From Thermodesulfobacteriota bacterium (GTDB taxonomy: Bacteria > Desulfobacterota > Thermodesulfobacteria > Thermodesulfobacteriales > Thermodesulfatatoraceae), in assembly GCA_013153725.1 (NCBI GenBank), contig JAADDY010000038.1, positions 1 through 32,594 of the forward strand: DNA of 32,594 nucleotides. Reading direction: 5' to 3'. The translations under genes were made by a program, and so were the position numbers. Under the pieces are notes generated by a model that did not search any database, was not told the origin of the DNA, and saw only the letters and a list, made by a program, of their open reading frames with translations. Shown piece by piece: positions 17,279-22,980 of this stretch; the stretch's first letter is position 1; each line of letters begins with the position of its first letter.

Positions 17279-19009
17279 GTGGCCCAAAACAATTTCATTC
17301 TGGCCCAAATTCTCGCCAAGGCCACTTCCAGGCCGGCCCTGGAGAACACCCCCTTCCCTCGTTACGTAAGATATCTGAAAAGTACCTCTCAGGGGCCGGG
17401 CTGGGACCTGGGAGGTGAGGTTCCCACCGCTTTCGGAAGGGCCTTCCTCTCAGACGGACGGATGGTGGAAGTTTATACTCCCCTCAGGTCTCTGGTGGAC
17501 TATCTGGCCCGGCGAAAAGACATCGAGAACGGGCTCTATCAACTGCAAGGGGGCAAAATTCTGGCCCTGAAAGAGCTCCTTCCGGAAAACGCCCTCGAGA
17601 ATCAGCCCCGGGAAATGCCGTTCACCCTCTCCCTGGGAAAGAGACTCTTCTGTGTCGTACCCCTCAAGAACAATCTTGGAGAAACTTTTGGTTACTACGT
17701 TCGCGAAGCCCGCGTCTCCTATCTGAAAAATTTCGCCTACGCCCTCTTCAAACGCAACGCCCTTCCCACCATCTTCTTTCTGGGAGTGGCCCTGGTTATC
17801 GCCCTTATGCTGACCAGACATTTCGTCTGTATCCCGCTCAACAATCTTCACACTCAGCTAACACGCATTTCCCAGGGAATCGGGAAGAGGCTCCGGGAAG
17901 CGGTGAAAGAAAAGATCATCGAGGCCCCGGGGAACGACGAAATATCTGCCCTCGCCCGCACCATCAACCAGCTCGTGAAGGAACTAGACGAACTGGCCTC
18001 CTTCAGACAGGCCATCGAAATGGACGAAACCCCCCTTGAGATCTACCATCGTCTTCACCGCGTCCTGACCAGCAGATTCGGCCTCTCAAATTTTGTCATC
18101 TTCGAGATCTCCAACAGTCAGAACCGTATCACCCCGGTGGTTACCGAACCTCCCCACTTGCTGGAGGAGTGCTGCCTGCGTGATATAAACCAGAATCCGA
18201 AACTCTGCCGGGTCTATCGCAGTGCTTCACGGGCAAGCTCCCTCCACTTCACCGAAACCTGTGAATACTTCCGCCACAAAGAGCTGAACTATATTTGCCT
18301 CCCTCTCTGCGTGGGAGGGAAGGTCATCGGCATCATCCACTTCCTCTTGCCGATGGAATACGCCTTAAAGGAGATGCAGCAGGCCATCATGGACAAGGTC
18401 CTGGCCTACATCAAGGAGGCTGCCCCCATCATCGAGGCCAAAAGATTCGCCGAAAGCCTGCGAGAGATGTCTTTTCGAGACTCCCTCACCGGTCTTTACA
18501 ACCGCCGCATCCTCGACGATCTCATCCCTCAGGTAGCAGCGGGGATCGTCAGACGAGAAAGCAACCTCGGCATTATCATGTTCGATATCGACCACTTCAA
18601 AATCTTGAACGACACTTACGGTCATTCTTTTGGCGACAAGGTCCTGGCCAAAATCGGCGACATCATTCGTTTCCAGCTTCGCAAGAGTGATTTTGCCATC
18701 CGCTTCGGTGGAGAAGAATTCCTGCTCTTGTTGGTAGATGCCAAACCGGGAAGCACCCTTCAGGTGGCGGAACGTCTTCGTCAACACATCGAGACCAGTG
18801 CTTTCGTCTTTGAAGGCAAAATGGCCACCGTGACCATCTCGGCAGGGGTGGCCGAATTCCCCCGGGATGATACCAACCTCTGGAACGTCATCAACTTTGC
18901 CGACGTGGCCCTTTACCGGGCCAAGGCCATGGGACGCAACCGGGTGGTAAGGTTTGAAAAGAGTTTCCTGAAGGAAGAATTAAAGCAAACGGATGAAAAG
19001 AAGTCTTAA
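17279..19009 (+). CDS. Membrane-bound diguanylate cyclase (sensor-HAMP-GAF-GGDEF), 5' end frameshifted
   Basis: As annotated from GTG 17279 this is 576 residues. Order: the rest of a periplasmic sensor domain (about 1-150), transmembrane helix 162-180, HAMP 180-240, a GAF-like domain 250-385 with six cysteines (298, 299, 310, 328, 340, 344), and GGDEF 398-565. The active site is GGEEF at 477-481 and the inhibitory RxxD site is Arg468 to Asp471, so cyclic di-GMP synthesis with product feedback is expected. The true start is probably ATG 17088 in another frame; the GTG start would leave the periplasmic domain without its first membrane anchor. The 3' end overlaps the convergent gene by 30 bases. 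It follows the NtrBC pair by about 40 bases. Confidence 0.85.
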   Translation: MAQNNFILAQILAKATSRPALENTPFPRYVRYLKSTSQGPGWDLGGEVPTAFGRAFLSDGRMVEVYTPLRSLVDYLARRKDIENGLYQLQGGKILALKELLPENALENQPREMPFTLSLGKRLFCVVPLKNNLGETFGYYVREARVSYLKNFAYALFKRNALPTIFFLGVALVIALMLTRHFVCIPLNNLHTQLTRISQGIGKRLREAVKEKIIEAPGNDEISALARTINQLVKELDELASFRQAIEMDETPLEIYHRLHRVLTSRFGLSNFVIFEISNSQNRITPVVTEPPHLLEECCLRDINQNPKLCRVYRSASRASSLHFTETCEYFRHKELNYICLPLCVGGKVIGIIHFLLPMEYALKEMQQAIMDKVLAYIKEAAPIIEAKRFAESLREMSFRDSLTGLYNRRILDDLIPQVAAGIVRRESNLGIIMFDIDHFKILNDTYGHSFGDKVLAKIGDIIRFQLRKSDFAIRFGGEEFLLLLVDAKPGSTLQVAERLRQHIETSAFVFEGKMATVTISAGVAEFPRDDTNLWNVINFADVALYRAKAMGRNRVVRFEKSFLKEELKQTDEKKS

Positions 19010-20386
19010 CTCAAAGTCTCCGTTTTCGCTTCCGATCCCGAAAAGCCCCTTGAGGATCCTGAAACGCCAGCCCTTGGGTTTGCGATGAAAAGAGAGAAGA
19101 AAGGCAAGCTCTACGATGTCTTCCTCATCGGTATGGTCGTGACGATAAAGCCCCCACAGAGCCTTGGAACGAGTAAAGCCGTTCGGATCCTGAACGTACT
19201 CGTAGAGTCGAAGAAGCGGGGCGATGGTGCGGTCTATCCCTTCGGAATGGAAAGGTAAAAGGGCCGGGAAGAAGAATATCTCGAAGCCGTCGTCGCGCTT
19301 TATTTGCTCTCCGAGAGGCCAGACCCGCGAGAACTGATATTTGAGACGGCCCTTTTCGTCTTTCACCTTCTCAAATTTGGTGAGCAACAGAAAAGTGCGG
19401 GTTTCCCGATGAAGCTCTCGCTCCTTGTGTCGAACAACGTCGTAGCGGTAAGTGTAGAGTGGCCAGAAGACAAAGTGAGAATACTCGTCTTTTGTTTTGC
19501 GGTAGCCCAGGAGGGGCCAGAAGCGTCTCTCACGGTAGGTGATTTTTTTGCCCTCGCCGTAACGGAAAATGGGCCATGGGAGATCCCAGGAGGTCACGTC
19601 GTTTTTATCGTGGCGGAAATAGCGAAAAAAGGGCCAGAAAAGGATGTAGCGTCGATGAAATTCGCTTTTCTCTTCCACCCAGAGAGGCCAGAACATATCC
19701 CGTGTTACCGTTCCATCCCCGAAGTAGAACTCCTCGTGCCAGAAGAAAGGCCACAGGAAAAAAGTGCGATCGTAAACCCCTTTCTTGATCTTGTGACTGT
19801 AAAAGGGCCAGAACTTGCGCTCGTAAAAGGTGGGGCCATCCGTGCGGTTGTAGATGGGCCAGAACCAGGTGCTGGAAACGTTACCATCAAAGCGGGATTT
19901 GACCCTGATAGGCCAGAAATAAAAACGCACTTCGTCTCTTCCGCCCCAGTTCAGGAGGCGACCATAGATGGGAAAAATGCCCCAAAAGGATTCGTCTTCC
20001 TTGGTTTTCCCCCAGAAGATGAGCCCAAAATTGTGGTATTTCTTGTTCTCGTTGATGTTTGAATTGCGGGCCCAGATAGGAACCAACCGGAGCCTGGTGT
20101 AATCCTGGCCTTCCTGGTAATGCCCCAGAGGAGGCAGAAAGTACACGTCGTGGCGTTCCTTGCGGTCCACCACCGCCAGGAAGGGCCTGAAGGCGGAGCC
20201 GCTTTCCGCCTTGGTTTCGTAAGCGTAATAAAGCGGCCCAAACAGCTCGAGCTCTCTCACGGAGCCGTCTTTTGATTCCTGAAAGAAGAGGAAGGGCCAC
20301 CAGTTATGACGTACACGCCCCTCCTGCGCCGCCACAGACGACGCCCAGCAGAGAACCAGGAATAGGAGGAGATACTTGCGCGGCAC
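18980..20386 (-). CDS. Exported Trp-Pro-repeat protein of unknown function, downstream of mlaD
   Basis: This 468-residue protein starts at GTG 20386, with AAGGAGG overlapping the mlaD stop 10 bases upstream. Residues 1-20 are a Sec signal peptide ending near Val-Ala-Ala. The mature protein is rich in Phe, Trp, Tyr and Arg and carries a repeated F-W-P-hydrophobic-aromatic motif. Between residues 158 and 308 there are nine Trp-Pro pairs spaced 17 to 21 residues, with degenerate copies before (30, 51, 85, 103) and after (356). The alternation of aromatic and charged segments suggests beta-strands or hairpins, perhaps an outer membrane or periplasmic beta structure. I do not recognise a named family. 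Its place at the end of the mla cluster suggests an envelope role. Confidence 0.8.
   Translation of the reverse strand: MPRKYLLLFLVLCWASSVAAQEGRVRHNWWPFLFFQESKDGSVRELELFGPLYYAYETKAESGSAFRPFLAVVDRKERHDVYFLPPLGHYQEGQDYTRLRLVPIWARNSNINENKKYHNFGLIFWGKTKEDESFWGIFPIYGRLLNWGGRDEVRFYFWPIRVKSRFDGNVSSTWFWPIYNRTDGPTFYERKFWPFYSHKIKKGVYDRTFFLWPFFWHEEFYFGDGTVTRDMFWPLWVEEKSEFHRRYILFWPFFRYFRHDKNDVTSWDLPWPIFRYGEGKKITYRERRFWPLLGYRKTKDEYSHFVFWPLYTYRYDVVRHKERELHRETRTFLLLTKFEKVKDEKGRLKYQFSRVWPLGEQIKRDDGFEIFFFPALLPFHSEGIDRTIAPLLRLYEYVQDPNGFTRSKALWGLYRHDHTDEEDIVELAFLLSFHRKPKGWRFRILKGLFGIGSENGDFELRLLFIRLL
19460..19915 (-). repeat. Nine Trp-Pro repeats inside the exported protein gene
   Basis: The segment encodes residues 158-309, where Trp-Pro recurs at 158, 176, 193, 212, 233, 251, 271, 290 and 308 (steps 18, 17, 19, 21, 18, 20, 19, 18). 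On the plus strand this shows as GGCCAGAA or close variants every 50 to 65 bases. The linkers differ in sequence, so the repeat is protein-level rather than a recent DNA duplication. Confidence 0.8.
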
Positions 20387-20396
20387 CCCCGCCTCC

Positions 20397-21455
20397 TTAC
20401 TGCAGGACCATGGTTCCTATCGTCCCCAGGATCGTCACGGGTACCTGTTCTTGGAGACCGGTGGCCGCCTGGTTTACGTTCCGCAGAGTCTTTTTGGCCT
20501 CCAGATAGAGACTGTCATCGTTGATAAGCCTCCCGAGGGTGCCTTCCCCGCGTTCGATCTTCTGCGCGATCTTGCTGAGAGAGTCGAAAGTGGCGTTGAG
20601 CTTGTTATAGAGCTCTTCATCACTGATCAACTTGCCAAGGGTGCCTTCGCCCTGCCCGATCTTCTTGGCCACCTCGCTCAGGGTGCTGGAGGCCTGGTTG
20701 ATGGTGGAAATGGTCTGCTTGAGGTCCGCATAAAGCTCGTCATCGTTGATGAGTTTGCCCAGCGTGCCTTCACCTCGATTCAGCTTGGCAGCCACATCAC
20801 TGAGATTAGCGGCCAGCCTTTCGATCTTGACGTAAAGGGTCTCGTCGGTGAGAAGTTTCCCGATGGTGCCTTCACCCTTTGCCAGCCTCTCCCCCACTTC
20901 TTTGAAGGCCGCGGCGGCGTCTTTTATGTTCGCCACCATTTGCCTGAAATTATTCAACCCTTCCTCGGAACCCAAGAGTTCTTTGAGCCCGGCAGTGATC
21001 TCCCGCAGGTTTTGAATGGCGGGCCCCACTTCTGCCAGGATCTGATCGAGATCCACGGGTGAGATGGTCTTGGCAATCATGGCCCCGGGGGGCAGATATT
21101 CCGGGCTCCTGCCCTGACGAATTTCCACGTAGCGATCCCCGAGAACCCCTTTGGTGCGTACCATGGCCACGGCGTCTTTGGCGATCTTCACTCCTTCGTA
21201 AATGCGCATCTCCACCAGAGCCTTGCCGTCGGTAAGAGAGATACGAGAAACCCGACCAATCTCCACTCCAGCCATTTCAACCCGCGCCCCTTCCACCAGA
21301 CCGGAGACGTTTTCAAAAACGGCCTTGAGAGGATAAGTCTTCTTGGTGGAAATTTTCTCTTCCCCCAGTTGAAGGCTTAGATAAGCTAGAGCAAGAAGGG
21401 CTATCAAAACGAAAAGCCCAACTTTGATTTCCAGCCCTTTGTCAGTTCTTCTCAT
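20397..21455 (-). CDS. mlaD: MlaD-like MCE-domain protein with C-terminal repeats
   Basis: This 352-residue protein is anchored by one N-terminal helix (about 11-30) with the rest in the periplasm. Residues about 39-115 form the single MCE domain ([21 protein letters not shown], later VLGDRYVEI). The C-terminal half is predicted helical and carries four copies of GEGT[LI]G[KR]L...D..LY starting at residues 194, 228, 269 and 303. MCE proteins form hexameric rings that carry phospholipid between membranes with the MlaE/MlaF ABC transporter. ATG 21455 has AAGGAGG upstream and overlaps the mlaF 3' end by 14 bases. At 352 residues it is about twice the length of E. coli MlaD. Confidence 0.92.
20505..20876 (-). 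repeat. Four Gly-Glu-Gly-Thr repeats in the MlaD C-terminus
   Basis: The region encodes residues 194-317. Each unit reads GEGT[LI]G[KR]L[IL] followed by a short acidic stretch and L-Y, then a helical linker. Unit starts are 34, 41 and 34 residues apart; 41 is 34 plus one heptad, as expected if the linkers are packed helices. The DNA copies are similar but not identical (seen as GTGCCTTC blocks on the plus strand). Confidence 0.85.
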
Positions 21456-22200
21456 TTTTTTCCTCCTTACAACCTGTTGGCAAAGCGGTGATAAAACTCC
21501 TTACGAAAGGATGTTTTGAGGCCTTTATCTTTTCGGGAGGACCTTCCTCAATGATTACTCCCTCATGCAAGAAGGCGATCTTGTCTGCGATGGCAAAGGC
21601 TATCGGAACATCGTGGCTGATGACCACGCAGGTAAGACCGTGCTTTTCCTGGGTCTCTTCTATGAGTCGGGCAATGCTCTCCTGCATCAAAGGATCCAGC
21701 CCGGTAGTGGGCTCGTCAAAGAGAACGATCTCCGGGTCCAGAGCAAGGGCTCTGGCCAGAGCGGCCCTCTTTTTCATTCCTCCGGAAAGTTCTGAGGGCA
21801 TCTTGTCTATCGCTTCGATCAAACCCACCTGGGCCAGCTTGACCTCGACCCGGGCCCAGATTTCCTTTTCCGAAAGGTTCGTATGCTCTCTCAGTGGAAA
21901 GGCGACATTCTCTCCCACCGTCAAGGAATCGAACAGGGCACCTTCCTGAAAGAGCATGCCAAAACGTTTGCGAATCTGCATGAGCTCTTTTTCACTCATC
22001 TGCGTGATATCCTGGCCGTCGATCAGGATCTGACCTTTGTCCGGGGGGATGAGCCCGATGATGTGCTTCAAGAGAACACTCTTTCCCGTACCGCTCCTGC
22101 CCATGATGAAAGTGATCTTCCCTTTCGGGATATCCAGATTCACTCCTCGGAGGACTTTCTGTTTCCCAAAAGATTTGTGGAGATCTACGATCTTTATCAT
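21442..22200 (-). CDS. mlaF: Phospholipid ABC transporter ATPase MlaF
   Basis: This 252-residue ABC ATPase has Walker [16 protein letters not shown]-loop [12 protein letters not shown], signature [15 protein letters not shown], Walker [15 protein letters not shown] and the His switch VISHD. The LSGGM-KR signature and the EGALFDS segment are typical of MlaF/Ttg2A. It powers the MlaE permease at the inner membrane. ATG 22200 lies 9 bases after the mlaE stop, with AGAGG upstream, and the stop codon is inside mlaD, so the three genes form one unit. Confidence 0.95.
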
Positions 22201-22209
22201 TATTGGCCT

Positions 22210-22980
22210 CTAGAAAAGGAGAGAAGTAAGGATGTAATCGGCAATCAGAATGCTGATTGACGAAATAACCACCGCCTGTGTGGTAGCTTTCCCAACTCCT
22301 TCGGCTCCACCTCGGGCATTATAACCTTTAAAGCAACCCACTACAGCCAGGATGGCTCCAAACACGAAGGCCTTGTAAAGCCCGTTAATGATATCGACTA
22401 GCTCCACCAGCTCTTTCATTTTACTTACAAAGACCCCGGCATCGATGTGGAGCAAAATGACACCCACGAAGTATCCTCCGGCGATTCCTACCAGATCTGC
22501 CAGAACGGTGAGAAGAGGTACCATCAAAACTGCCGCCCAGAATCTCGGAACAACCAGATAGTGGATGGGGTTTACCGCCATCACCCGCAGAGCGTCTATC
22601 TGTTCTGTAACACGCATGGTGCCGATTTCAGCCGCCATGGCCGAACCGGCCCGCGCCGTTACCATCAGACCGGTGAGAACTGGCCCAAGCTCCCGCACCA
22701 GGGAAAGGGCCACCGTTGCCCCCAGGAGACTCTCTCCTCCGAATTTGCGGAAACCATAATATCCCTCTAGAGCCAGGACCATCCCCGAAAAAAGCCCTGT
22801 TAGCACCACTACGAGAGTAGACTTAACCCCCACAAATTCCATCTGCTTAATGAACAGCCGCAAACGAAAGGGGGGCTTGAAGGTGAGGCCCAGAGTTTGC
22901 AAGAACATAAGGGCCATGCCACCCATCTCTTCTAATATGCTGATAGTGAAGGCACCCAGAGCAGCTACCGGGTTATACAC
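22210..22980 (-). CDS. mlaE: Phospholipid ABC transporter permease MlaE
   Basis: This 256-residue permease has five or six hydrophobic segments. It carries the MlaE signature region LVRELGPVLTGLMVTARAGSA followed by EIGTMRVTEQIDALRVM, which contacts MlaF. The start is GTG 22980 with GGGAGG about 8 bases upstream. It is the first mla gene; the 157-base AT-rich gap before it, after mtaB, may hold the mla promoter (TTGACG on the minus strand at 23061-23056, but no convincing -10 at the right distance). Confidence 0.94.
   Translation of the reverse strand: MYNPVAALGAFTISILEEMGGMALMFLQTLGLTFKPPFRLRLFIKQMEFVGVKSTLVVVLTGLFSGMVLALEGYYGFRKFGGESLLGATVALSLVRELGPVLTGLMVTARAGSAMAAEIGTMRVTEQIDALRVMAVNPIHYLVVPRFWAAVLMVPLLTVLADLVGIAGGYFVGVILLHIDAGVFVSKMKELVELVDIINGLYKAFVFGAILAVVGCFKGYNARGGAEGVGKATTQAVVISSISILIADYILTSLLF

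What the first reader, a model, noticed from the sequence alone, without database searches (positions are those of the whole stretch)
20505..20876. Heptad-compatible GEGT repeats in the MlaD C-terminus
Four copies of GEGT[LI]G[KR]L...LY start at residues 194, 228, 269 and 303. The spacing 34, 41, 34 differs by exactly 7, as expected for helical units stacked in a hexameric needle. E. coli MlaD has no such part. The repeats may lengthen the lipid conduit across the periplasm, by analogy with the stacked MCE rings or needles of LetB and PqiB.
Basis: partly seen in the sequence, partly recalled or inferred. Interest (0 to 1): 0.5.

Follow-up and report, generated by a model that had tools for sequence, protein, structure and literature searches.

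The report
Stepped MlaD needle with paired protein
A bacterial lipid-transport protein ends in a chain of similar helical units whose length changes almost only in seven-residue steps, as a periplasm-crossing rod should, and bacteria with this kind of rod nearly always carry a so-far unnamed secreted protein that was not found in bacteria whose rod has its own outer-membrane end piece.

Summary
In detail: MlaD (window 20397-21455, minus strand) has GEGT motifs at residues 194, 228, 269 and 303. It is a family trait: in 80 relatives, 153 of 156 single spacings are 34+7k, and 29 of 32 length changes inferred on a tree are multiples of 7. AlphaFold2 gives helix-kink-helix units at moderate confidence; the top Foldseek match is Mce1, needle included. 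Best reading: needle modules of a long MlaD that lacks a fused beta-barrel. Long MlaDs are already published; the GEGT motif was not found in print.

The surprise is the next gene (18980-20386), a secreted all-beta 'FWP' protein without a Pfam family. Genome-wide it occurs with 66 of 68 barrel-less and 0 of 12 barrel-bearing MlaDs; among 395 phylum genomes 114 have FWP, 69 the barrel, none both, 20 expected. MlaC, MlaA and PqiC were not found in the order. FWP is the best candidate for the missing outer-membrane-side partner. Hexamer, contact and transport are inferred.

The parts
20397..21455 (-). mlaD, 352 aa, elongated MCE protein without a fused C-terminal beta-barrel
   Evidence: ORF; PF02470 69.9 bits, cut-off 25.1; only PF02470 match in the own genome, which is 81% complete
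21354..21440 (-). N-terminal membrane helix, residues 6-34
   Evidence: AlphaFold2 helix H6-34; hydrophobic by eye
21111..21338 (-). MCE domain, residues 40-115
   Evidence: block-mean pLDDT 89-97
20454..21050 (-). helical needle region, residues 136-334: long helices broken at each GEGT
   Evidence: AlphaFold2 secondary structure; Foldseek match to chain B of Mce1 over 339 columns, E 2.7e-14
20853..20876 (-). GEGT motif 1, residues 194-201
20751..20774 (-). GEGT motif 2, residues 228-235
20628..20651 (-). GEGT motif 3, residues 269-276
20526..20549 (-). GEGT motif 4, residues 303-310
20400..20453 (-). conserved hydrophobic C-terminal tail, residues 335-352 (part of ..[18 protein letters not shown]); in most barrel-less relatives the protein ends 49-51 residues after the start of the last GEGT
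   Evidence: mostly pLDDT below 50
18980..20386 (-). FWP gene: 468 aa, GTG start, 10 bases between the mlaD stop and its start; secreted all-beta protein with WP/FP about every 19 residues; proposed partner of barrel-less MlaD
20327..20386 (-). probable signal peptide of FWP, residues 1-20
   Evidence: sequence, by eye; helix H2-19 followed by beta strands
21442..22200 (-). mlaF, ABC ATPase; overlaps the mlaD start by 14 bases
   Evidence: PF00005; best NCBIfam match MlaF, 256 bits, below its cut-off of 441
22210..22980 (-). mlaE, permease
   Evidence: PF02405 290 bits; TIGR00056 287 bits, cut-off 212

Best explanation
The GEGT repeats are needle modules of an elongated MlaD. Each unit is a long amphipathic helix, a glycine kink (GxGT), a short helix (LGKLLxD) and an aspartate-capped start of the next helix (DxLY). 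Six subunits would pack these units into stacked helical bundles that carry a hydrophobic lipid path from the MlaEF ABC transporter towards the outer membrane; unit lengths change almost only by whole heptads because a bundle must keep its packing register. This MlaD has no fused C-terminal beta-barrel, and MlaA, MlaC and PqiC were not found in its order, so the needle tip must meet the outer membrane through something else. The neighbouring FWP protein, exported by a Sec-type signal or in some species as a lipoprotein and all-beta, is the best candidate for that role and stands in for the beta-barrel that other long MlaDs carry. Shown: motif, heptad-quantised lengths, absence of MlaA/MlaC/PqiC matches, near-perfect co-occurrence of FWP with barrel-less MlaD and exclusion with barrel-bearing MlaD in the samples. 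Predicted: helix-kink-helix units, all-beta FWP. Inferred: hexamer, tunnel, contact of needle or tail with FWP, direction of transport.
For: Heptads. Helix/kink units: residue preferences over 250 units, AlphaFold2, Foldseek to Mce1, whose subunits hold eight helical repeats separated by kinks and stacked as six-helix bundles (PMC9882608, passages). Missing shuttle parts: MlaC 0 of 41 and MlaA 0 of 41 genomes of the order, PqiC family over its cut-off 0 of 41. FWP: genome-wide in 66 of 68 barrel-less named cases (53 linked; 13 of the other 15 elsewhere in the genome) and in 0 of 12 barrel cases (8 of 8 positive controls found). 114 FWP and 69 barrel genomes among 395 of the phylum, overlap 0. 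FWP is kept when unlinked from mlaD.
Against: The helices are predicted at block-mean pLDDT of about 49-71, pTM 0.39, and no hexamer could be modelled. FWP is not an evident outer-membrane barrel: 45 strands, mostly 5-7 residues, weakly like exposed single-layer sheets. No experiment links FWP to MlaD. Exceptions: barrel-less MlaD without FWP in the genomes of L113 and L126, in G034 and G080 (its contig may end too early); FWP without any MlaD found in G006 and G026, without a tail-type MlaD found in G059. In G039 only a 63-residue FWP piece and in G032 about half of it was found. Single GEGT-like motifs also occur in other long MCE proteins with a different end, in genomes without FWP (G046, G047, G063, G084, G097), so the motif alone does not imply FWP. 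Within the phylum sample no taxonomic family holds both FWP and barrel, so genomes are not independent (family-level P about 5e-4 to 9e-4). Three of 32 spacing changes are +1.
Confidence: 0.68

Rival explanations
1. The needle works alone. The conserved C-terminal tails of six subunits form a small six-stranded barrel at the outer membrane, as in the Mce1 portal, and FWP does something else in the envelope that is merely needed in the same organisms.
For: Mce1 has a six-stranded portal made of one C-terminal strand per subunit (PMC9882608, passages) and such barrels were predicted for two barrel-less MlaDs (PMC10665443, passages); the tail is conserved; FWP is unlinked from mlaD in part of the order.
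Against: FWP follows barrel-less MlaD even when unlinked, is mostly single copy, and was not found where MlaD carries a barrel. The two ideas can both hold.
Confidence: 0.22
2. The C-terminus is a flexible, partly disordered tether or a simple coiled coil and not a lipid conduit; the heptad steps only mean that some coiled coil forms.
For: AlphaFold2 monomer confidence is low in this part; a PDB sequence search with the C-terminus alone finds only weak matches, the best to designed coiled coils.
Against: Strongly conserved kink motif with fixed phase over 250 units; with MlaA, MlaC and PqiC not found, no other known bridge is left; the Foldseek alignment to Mce1 includes the needle.
Confidence: 0.12
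3. FWP and barrel-less MlaD only share ancestry: they were inherited together in some lineages and barrel-bearing MlaD in others, without functional replacement.
For: No taxonomic family in the phylum sample holds both types.
Against: Barrel state changes at least 6 times on the MCE-domain tree (some nodes weakly supported); L073, barrel-less but placed beside barrel types, has FWP; FWP lies on either side of mlaEFD in different loci.
Confidence: 0.15

Closest known systems
Elongated transenvelope MlaD (Veillonella parvula, PMC10665443, passages seen)
   Same: MCE domain plus long helical region, with MlaEF, and no MlaA or MlaC
   Different: V. parvula MlaD ends in a predicted 10-stranded outer-membrane barrel; this one ends in a short conserved tail and sits next to FWP. 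In that paper the words motif, heptad and coiled do not occur in the main text.
Mce1 needle (Mycobacterium smegmatis, PMC9882608, passages seen)
   Same: Helical repeats separated by kinks after an MCE domain; top Foldseek match
   Different: Mce1 is a heterohexamer of six MCE proteins with eight repeats each; here one MCE gene was found, with four GEGT kinks
PqiB-PqiC and Brucella MpcD-MpcA (PMC10897342, PMC12436622, passages seen)
   Same: MCE needle whose outer-membrane end is served by a separate protein of the same operon
   Different: MpcA is homologous to PqiC; I take PF03886 as their family (recalled), and FWP does not match it; only some FWP proteins show a lipobox
Canonical E. coli MlaD with MlaC/MlaA shuttle
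   Same: MCE domain, membrane helix, MlaE and MlaF
   Different: No needle in E. coli MlaD; MlaC and MlaA not found in the order of the window
LetB (stacked MCE rings)
   Same: Idea of a bridge across the periplasm
   Different: LetB stacks seven MCE domains (PMC12436622, passage); here one MCE domain and helices

Membership tests
MCE/MlaD superfamily (PF02470) | MCE domain over the Pfam cut-off | tested here: met
   69.9 bits, cut-off 25.1
MCE/MlaD superfamily (PF02470) | hexameric ring | not testable with these tools
   monomer prediction only
Canonical MlaD (TIGR04430 equivalog) | score over the curated cut-off | tested here: not met
   124.4 bits, cut-off 135
Canonical Mla shuttle system | MlaC and MlaA in the genome | tested here: not met
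   0 of 41 genomes of the order for each, own genome (81% complete) included, 30 of the 41 at least 90% complete; E. coli and Caulobacter controls ring
Elongated transenvelope MlaD | long helical region after the MCE domain | tested here: met
   AlphaFold2 helices over residues 136-334, at moderate confidence
Elongated transenvelope MlaD | C-terminal beta-barrel (Veillonella subtype) | tested here: not met
   only 50 residues from the last GEGT to the end; no barrel-domain match in G000
Mce1-type needle | helical repeats separated by kinks | tested here: inconclusive
   predicted units and Foldseek E 2.7e-14 to Mce1 chain B, but pTM 0.39 and TM-score 0.35
Mce1-type needle | six different MCE subunits | tested here: not met
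   one PF02470 match in the genome, which is 81% complete
LetB/PqiB | several MCE domains in tandem | tested here: not met
   one matched stretch
PqiC/MpcA cap (PF03886), for FWP | PF03886 match | tested here: not met
   no such match for the window protein, 10 homologues or any of 45 alignment members at E 0.01
MlaD C-terminal barrel domain, for FWP | profile similarity to the barrel domain | tested here: not met
   hhalign probability 0.1 with 15 barrel sequences against A4
Transmembrane outer-membrane barrel, for FWP | closed barrel of membrane-spanning strands | tested here: inconclusive

The most novel reading that the evidence does not exclude
FWP is the unidentified outer-membrane-side component of an ancient MlaEFD system: a family of exported proteins whose long antiparallel sheet has hydrophobic WP turns along one edge and polar turns along the other. 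It receives the tip of the GEGT needle as a collar, ring or lipid slide, and in evolution it is exchanged for a barrel fused to MlaD. MlaD systems of this phylum would then fall into three outer-membrane solutions: MlaC/MlaA shuttle, fused barrel, or FWP.
Probability: 0.5. Interest if true: 0.8.

Novelty: new variant of a known kind. Interest (0 to 1): 0.62.

Why it matters
The 2023 Veillonella study found that 85% of MlaD homologues are long and most of the long ones lack a barrel, and suggested that as yet unidentified proteins may be needed (PMC10665443, passages). The pattern here names one testable candidate, FWP, and predicts in which genomes it should be found. The heptad rule gives a simple, mutation-testable sign that the needle is a packed helical bundle.

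Tried and rejected
Recent DNA duplication: rejected; the repeats are 62-78% identical in bases, and in 28 order proteins with four units, units at the same position in different species resemble each other more (0.56) than units within one protein (0.48).

FWP as a low-complexity or chance match: rejected; profile scores of about 180 to 590 bits in the 53 linked loci (circular for the members of A4, not for the barrel loci, which gave none), invariant prolines, pLDDT 93.9.

FWP as a classical outer-membrane barrel or as PqiC-like: not supported. Amphipathic alternation of its strands is weak (mean difference 0.50 against 0.40 in shuffles, largest of 2000 shuffles 0.57). Foldseek and VIA-align listed no convincing fold (best VIA Z 10.4 at rmsd 12.6).

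PDB entry 13hr (Mce/MlaD protein, 312 aa) matches the A2 profile over 8-301; two searches with the C-terminal part did not list it, so whether it shows GEGT kinks is unknown.

A weak match of 6 of 45 FWP members to NCBIfam LA_1737 and the four-stretch match of MlaD to the Leptospira Mce model (far below its cut-off) hint at Leptospira; a literature search gave nothing on it (listing only).

One script failed on a file name and the regex-based extraction missed proteins; it was replaced by phmmer (on). Rows dropped before counts: L107 and L111 were cut by my start-choosing rule, so their motifs are not counted; 16 longer spacings (68, 69, 82, 103, 106, 107) are not among the 156 single ones; spacings of 60 or more were set to missing; L050 (holds N), exact duplicates and proteins under 200 aa were left out. 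Among the 68 barrel-less named cases L063 and L099 are cut by the contig end, so their class is assumed; without them it is 64 of 66. The barrel class was assigned by me from the C-terminus.

Full report
OBSERVATION. The ORF at window 20397-21455 (minus, 352 aa) is an MCE protein (PF02470) directly behind mlaE (22210-22980) and mlaF (21442-22200). The four GEGT motifs stand at residues 194, 228, 269 and 303 with spacings 34, 41, 34. None of 200,000 shuffles of the C-terminus had two loose motifs. The genome (1.6 Mb, 81% complete) has one PF02470 match; its nearest named relatives are Thermodesulfobacteriales and Thermodesulfatator by record title.

HEPTAD TEST. In 30 MlaD proteins of the same order all spacings are 34, 41, 75 or 82; 75 and 82 are sums over one degenerate copy (alignment). 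In pairwise alignments within the order, 764 of 884 gaps in the C-terminal part are exactly 7 residues, in the MCE part 0 of 324. In these 80 proteins the single spacings are 27 (1), 34 (110), 35 (3), 41 (32) and 48 (10): 153 of 156 are 34+7k; 16 longer ones were not decomposed. On a FastTree of the MCE part (115 proteins), parsimony over gap positions counted from the C-terminus infers 32 changes, 29 of them multiples of 7 and three +1. The binomial P of 1e-21 there assumes independent, uniform changes and is only a guide.

WHAT A UNIT LOOKS LIKE. Over 250 units the pattern is fixed: hydrophobic residues at -17, -10, -7 and -3; G0, G2, T3, L4, G5, K6, L7; D at +10; LY at +13/+14; hydrophobic again at +17, +24 and +31 (G0, G2 and the classes at 3-7 are partly set by the search pattern). 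By common helix-capping rules (recalled) this reads as helix, glycine C-cap, short helix, aspartate N-cap, helix. AlphaFold2 with 46 sequences gives just that: H164-192, H197-203, H205-226, H231-237, H239-267, H271-278, H280-301, H305-312, H314-334, with breaks at each GEGT. Block-mean pLDDT is 89-97 in the MCE domain, about 49-71 in the helices, below 50 in the tail; pTM 0.39; a hexamer could not be predicted. Foldseek's best PDB match is chain B of Mce1 over 339 columns, E 2.7e-14, TM 0.35. In Mce1 each subunit has eight helical repeats separated by kinks, stacked as six-helix bundles around a hydrophobic tunnel, and a six-stranded C-terminal barrel (PMC9882608, passages). The GEGT units most likely are such modules.

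ALREADY KNOWN. Long MlaDs, the lack of MlaA and MlaC, and a transenvelope bridge are published for Veillonella (PMC10665443, passages): 85% of MlaD homologues are long, a C-terminal barrel was inferred in 103 sequences, and the majority of long ones are barrel-less. The main text does not use the words motif, heptad or coiled; 'GEGTLGKL' occurs in no paper of the library. The library lacks bioRxiv and most subscription papers. Other literature searches; the titles and abstract starts they listed showed neither the GEGT module nor FWP.

NO SHUTTLE FOUND. MlaC and MlaA match none of 41 genomes of the order sampled, 30 of them at least 90% complete and at most 5% contaminated. The PqiC family PF03886 is over its cut-off in none of the 41; two weak matches lie next to a second MCE gene.

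THE FWP GENE. Ten bases lie between mlaD and a 468-aa protein with a probable signal peptide and WP/FP about every 19 residues. It has no Pfam family and no PDB sequence match. Homologues lie beside mlaE/F/D on the same strand in records titled Thermodesulfobacteriota, Dadabacteria, Methylomirabilota and NC10, Nitrospirae, Verrucomicrobiota, Kiritimatiellae, Lentisphaerae and Hydrogenedens, after mlaD in some, before mlaE in others. Most have a Sec-type signal, a few a lipobox (rule of thumb). AlphaFold2 with 45 sequences: pLDDT 93.9, pTM 0.80, 45 strands, mostly 5-7 residues. Polar linkers (DG, NG, KG types) alternate with hydrophobic WP linkers. Fold matches are to single-layer sheets (CPAP G-box, OspA, MORN1) and large shells (teneurin), all weak.

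CO-OCCURRENCE, NAMED LOCI. Of the 80, 12 MlaDs carry a fused barrel and 68 do not (my classification from the C-terminus; two of the 68 are cut by the contig end). FWP is linked in 53 of 68 and in 0 of 12. Of the 15 others 13 have it elsewhere in the genome, exceptions L113 and L126; the 12 barrel genomes have none; 8 of 8 positive controls were found.

CO-OCCURRENCE, 99 RELATIVES. 39 of 41 order genomes have an FWP match, including genera where it is unlinked; G039 has only a 63-residue piece and G032 about half. In the 58 other phylum genomes: 19 have a tail-type barrel-less MlaD with GEGT, 18 of them FWP (miss: G080, whose mlaD contig may end too early); 10 have barrel MlaD, none FWP; 28 are neither as far as seen, none FWP, MlaC in 27; G059 has FWP but no tail-type MlaD found. 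None of the 28 is among the barrel genomes. I examined 30 further loci from them: 28 gave an MlaD-like hit, none tail-type; single GEGT-like motifs with other ends occur in G046, G047, G084 and G097 and in G063. Not every MCE gene of the 28 was read, since the list was cut. MlaC occurs in 4 of the 19 (G041, G065, G080, G086); in G065 and G086 it lies on the contig of a separate short MlaD.

CO-OCCURRENCE, PHYLUM. In 395 genomes (overlapping the sample above) 114 have FWP, 69 the barrel domain at E 1e-10, none both; about 20 expected. Families do not mix either: 27 against 22, P 5e-4 to 9e-4 for an assumed 104 to 110 families. Barrel state changes at least 6 times on the MCE tree, with some weak nodes. 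The Fisher values ignore relatedness.

READING. The needle reading of the repeats is likely. That FWP stands in for the barrel is the simplest reading of the exclusion and of its persistence when unlinked. FWP and the barrel are not detectably homologous, so this would be functional replacement. How FWP works (collar, ring, groove) is open; the conserved MlaD tail is the obvious contact candidate.

Noticed in passing
L144-L147 (G012, G014, G019, G022): In genomes of the Thermodesulfobacterium type FWP has left the mla operon and lies next to a coaD-like gene (phosphopantetheine adenylyltransferase, recognised by eye) in all four loci inspected.
   Followed up: partly
G055, G061, G078, G089; weak matches in G015, G030: PqiC-family genes (PF03886) lie near separate MCE paralogues of about 300-580 aa, suggesting that different MCE systems have different outer-membrane partners.
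   Followed up: no
window 18980-20386 and 20397-21455: Six of 45 FWP homologues match NCBIfam NF047486 (LA_1737 family, Leptospira) at best E 6.3e-08, and the Leptospira Mce model matches this MlaD in four stretches, far below its cut-off: spirochaetes may have the same pair.
   Followed up: partly
L133 (G063), L139 (G059), L154 (G097), L156 (G046); L152 (G047), L153 (G084): Long MCE proteins with one GEGT-like motif and other C-terminal ends (W-L-[IL]-R type, or ..KYLKFSLF), neither barrel nor tail type.
   Followed up: partly
window 17279-19009 (+) and 18980-20386 (-): A HAMP-GGDEF protein gene ends convergently with the FWP gene; their 3' ends overlap by 30 bases.
   Followed up: no
PDB 13hr chain I: A solved 312-aa Mce/MlaD protein matches the long-MlaD profile over 8-301; it may show such needle modules but its alignment could not be read here.
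   Followed up: partly
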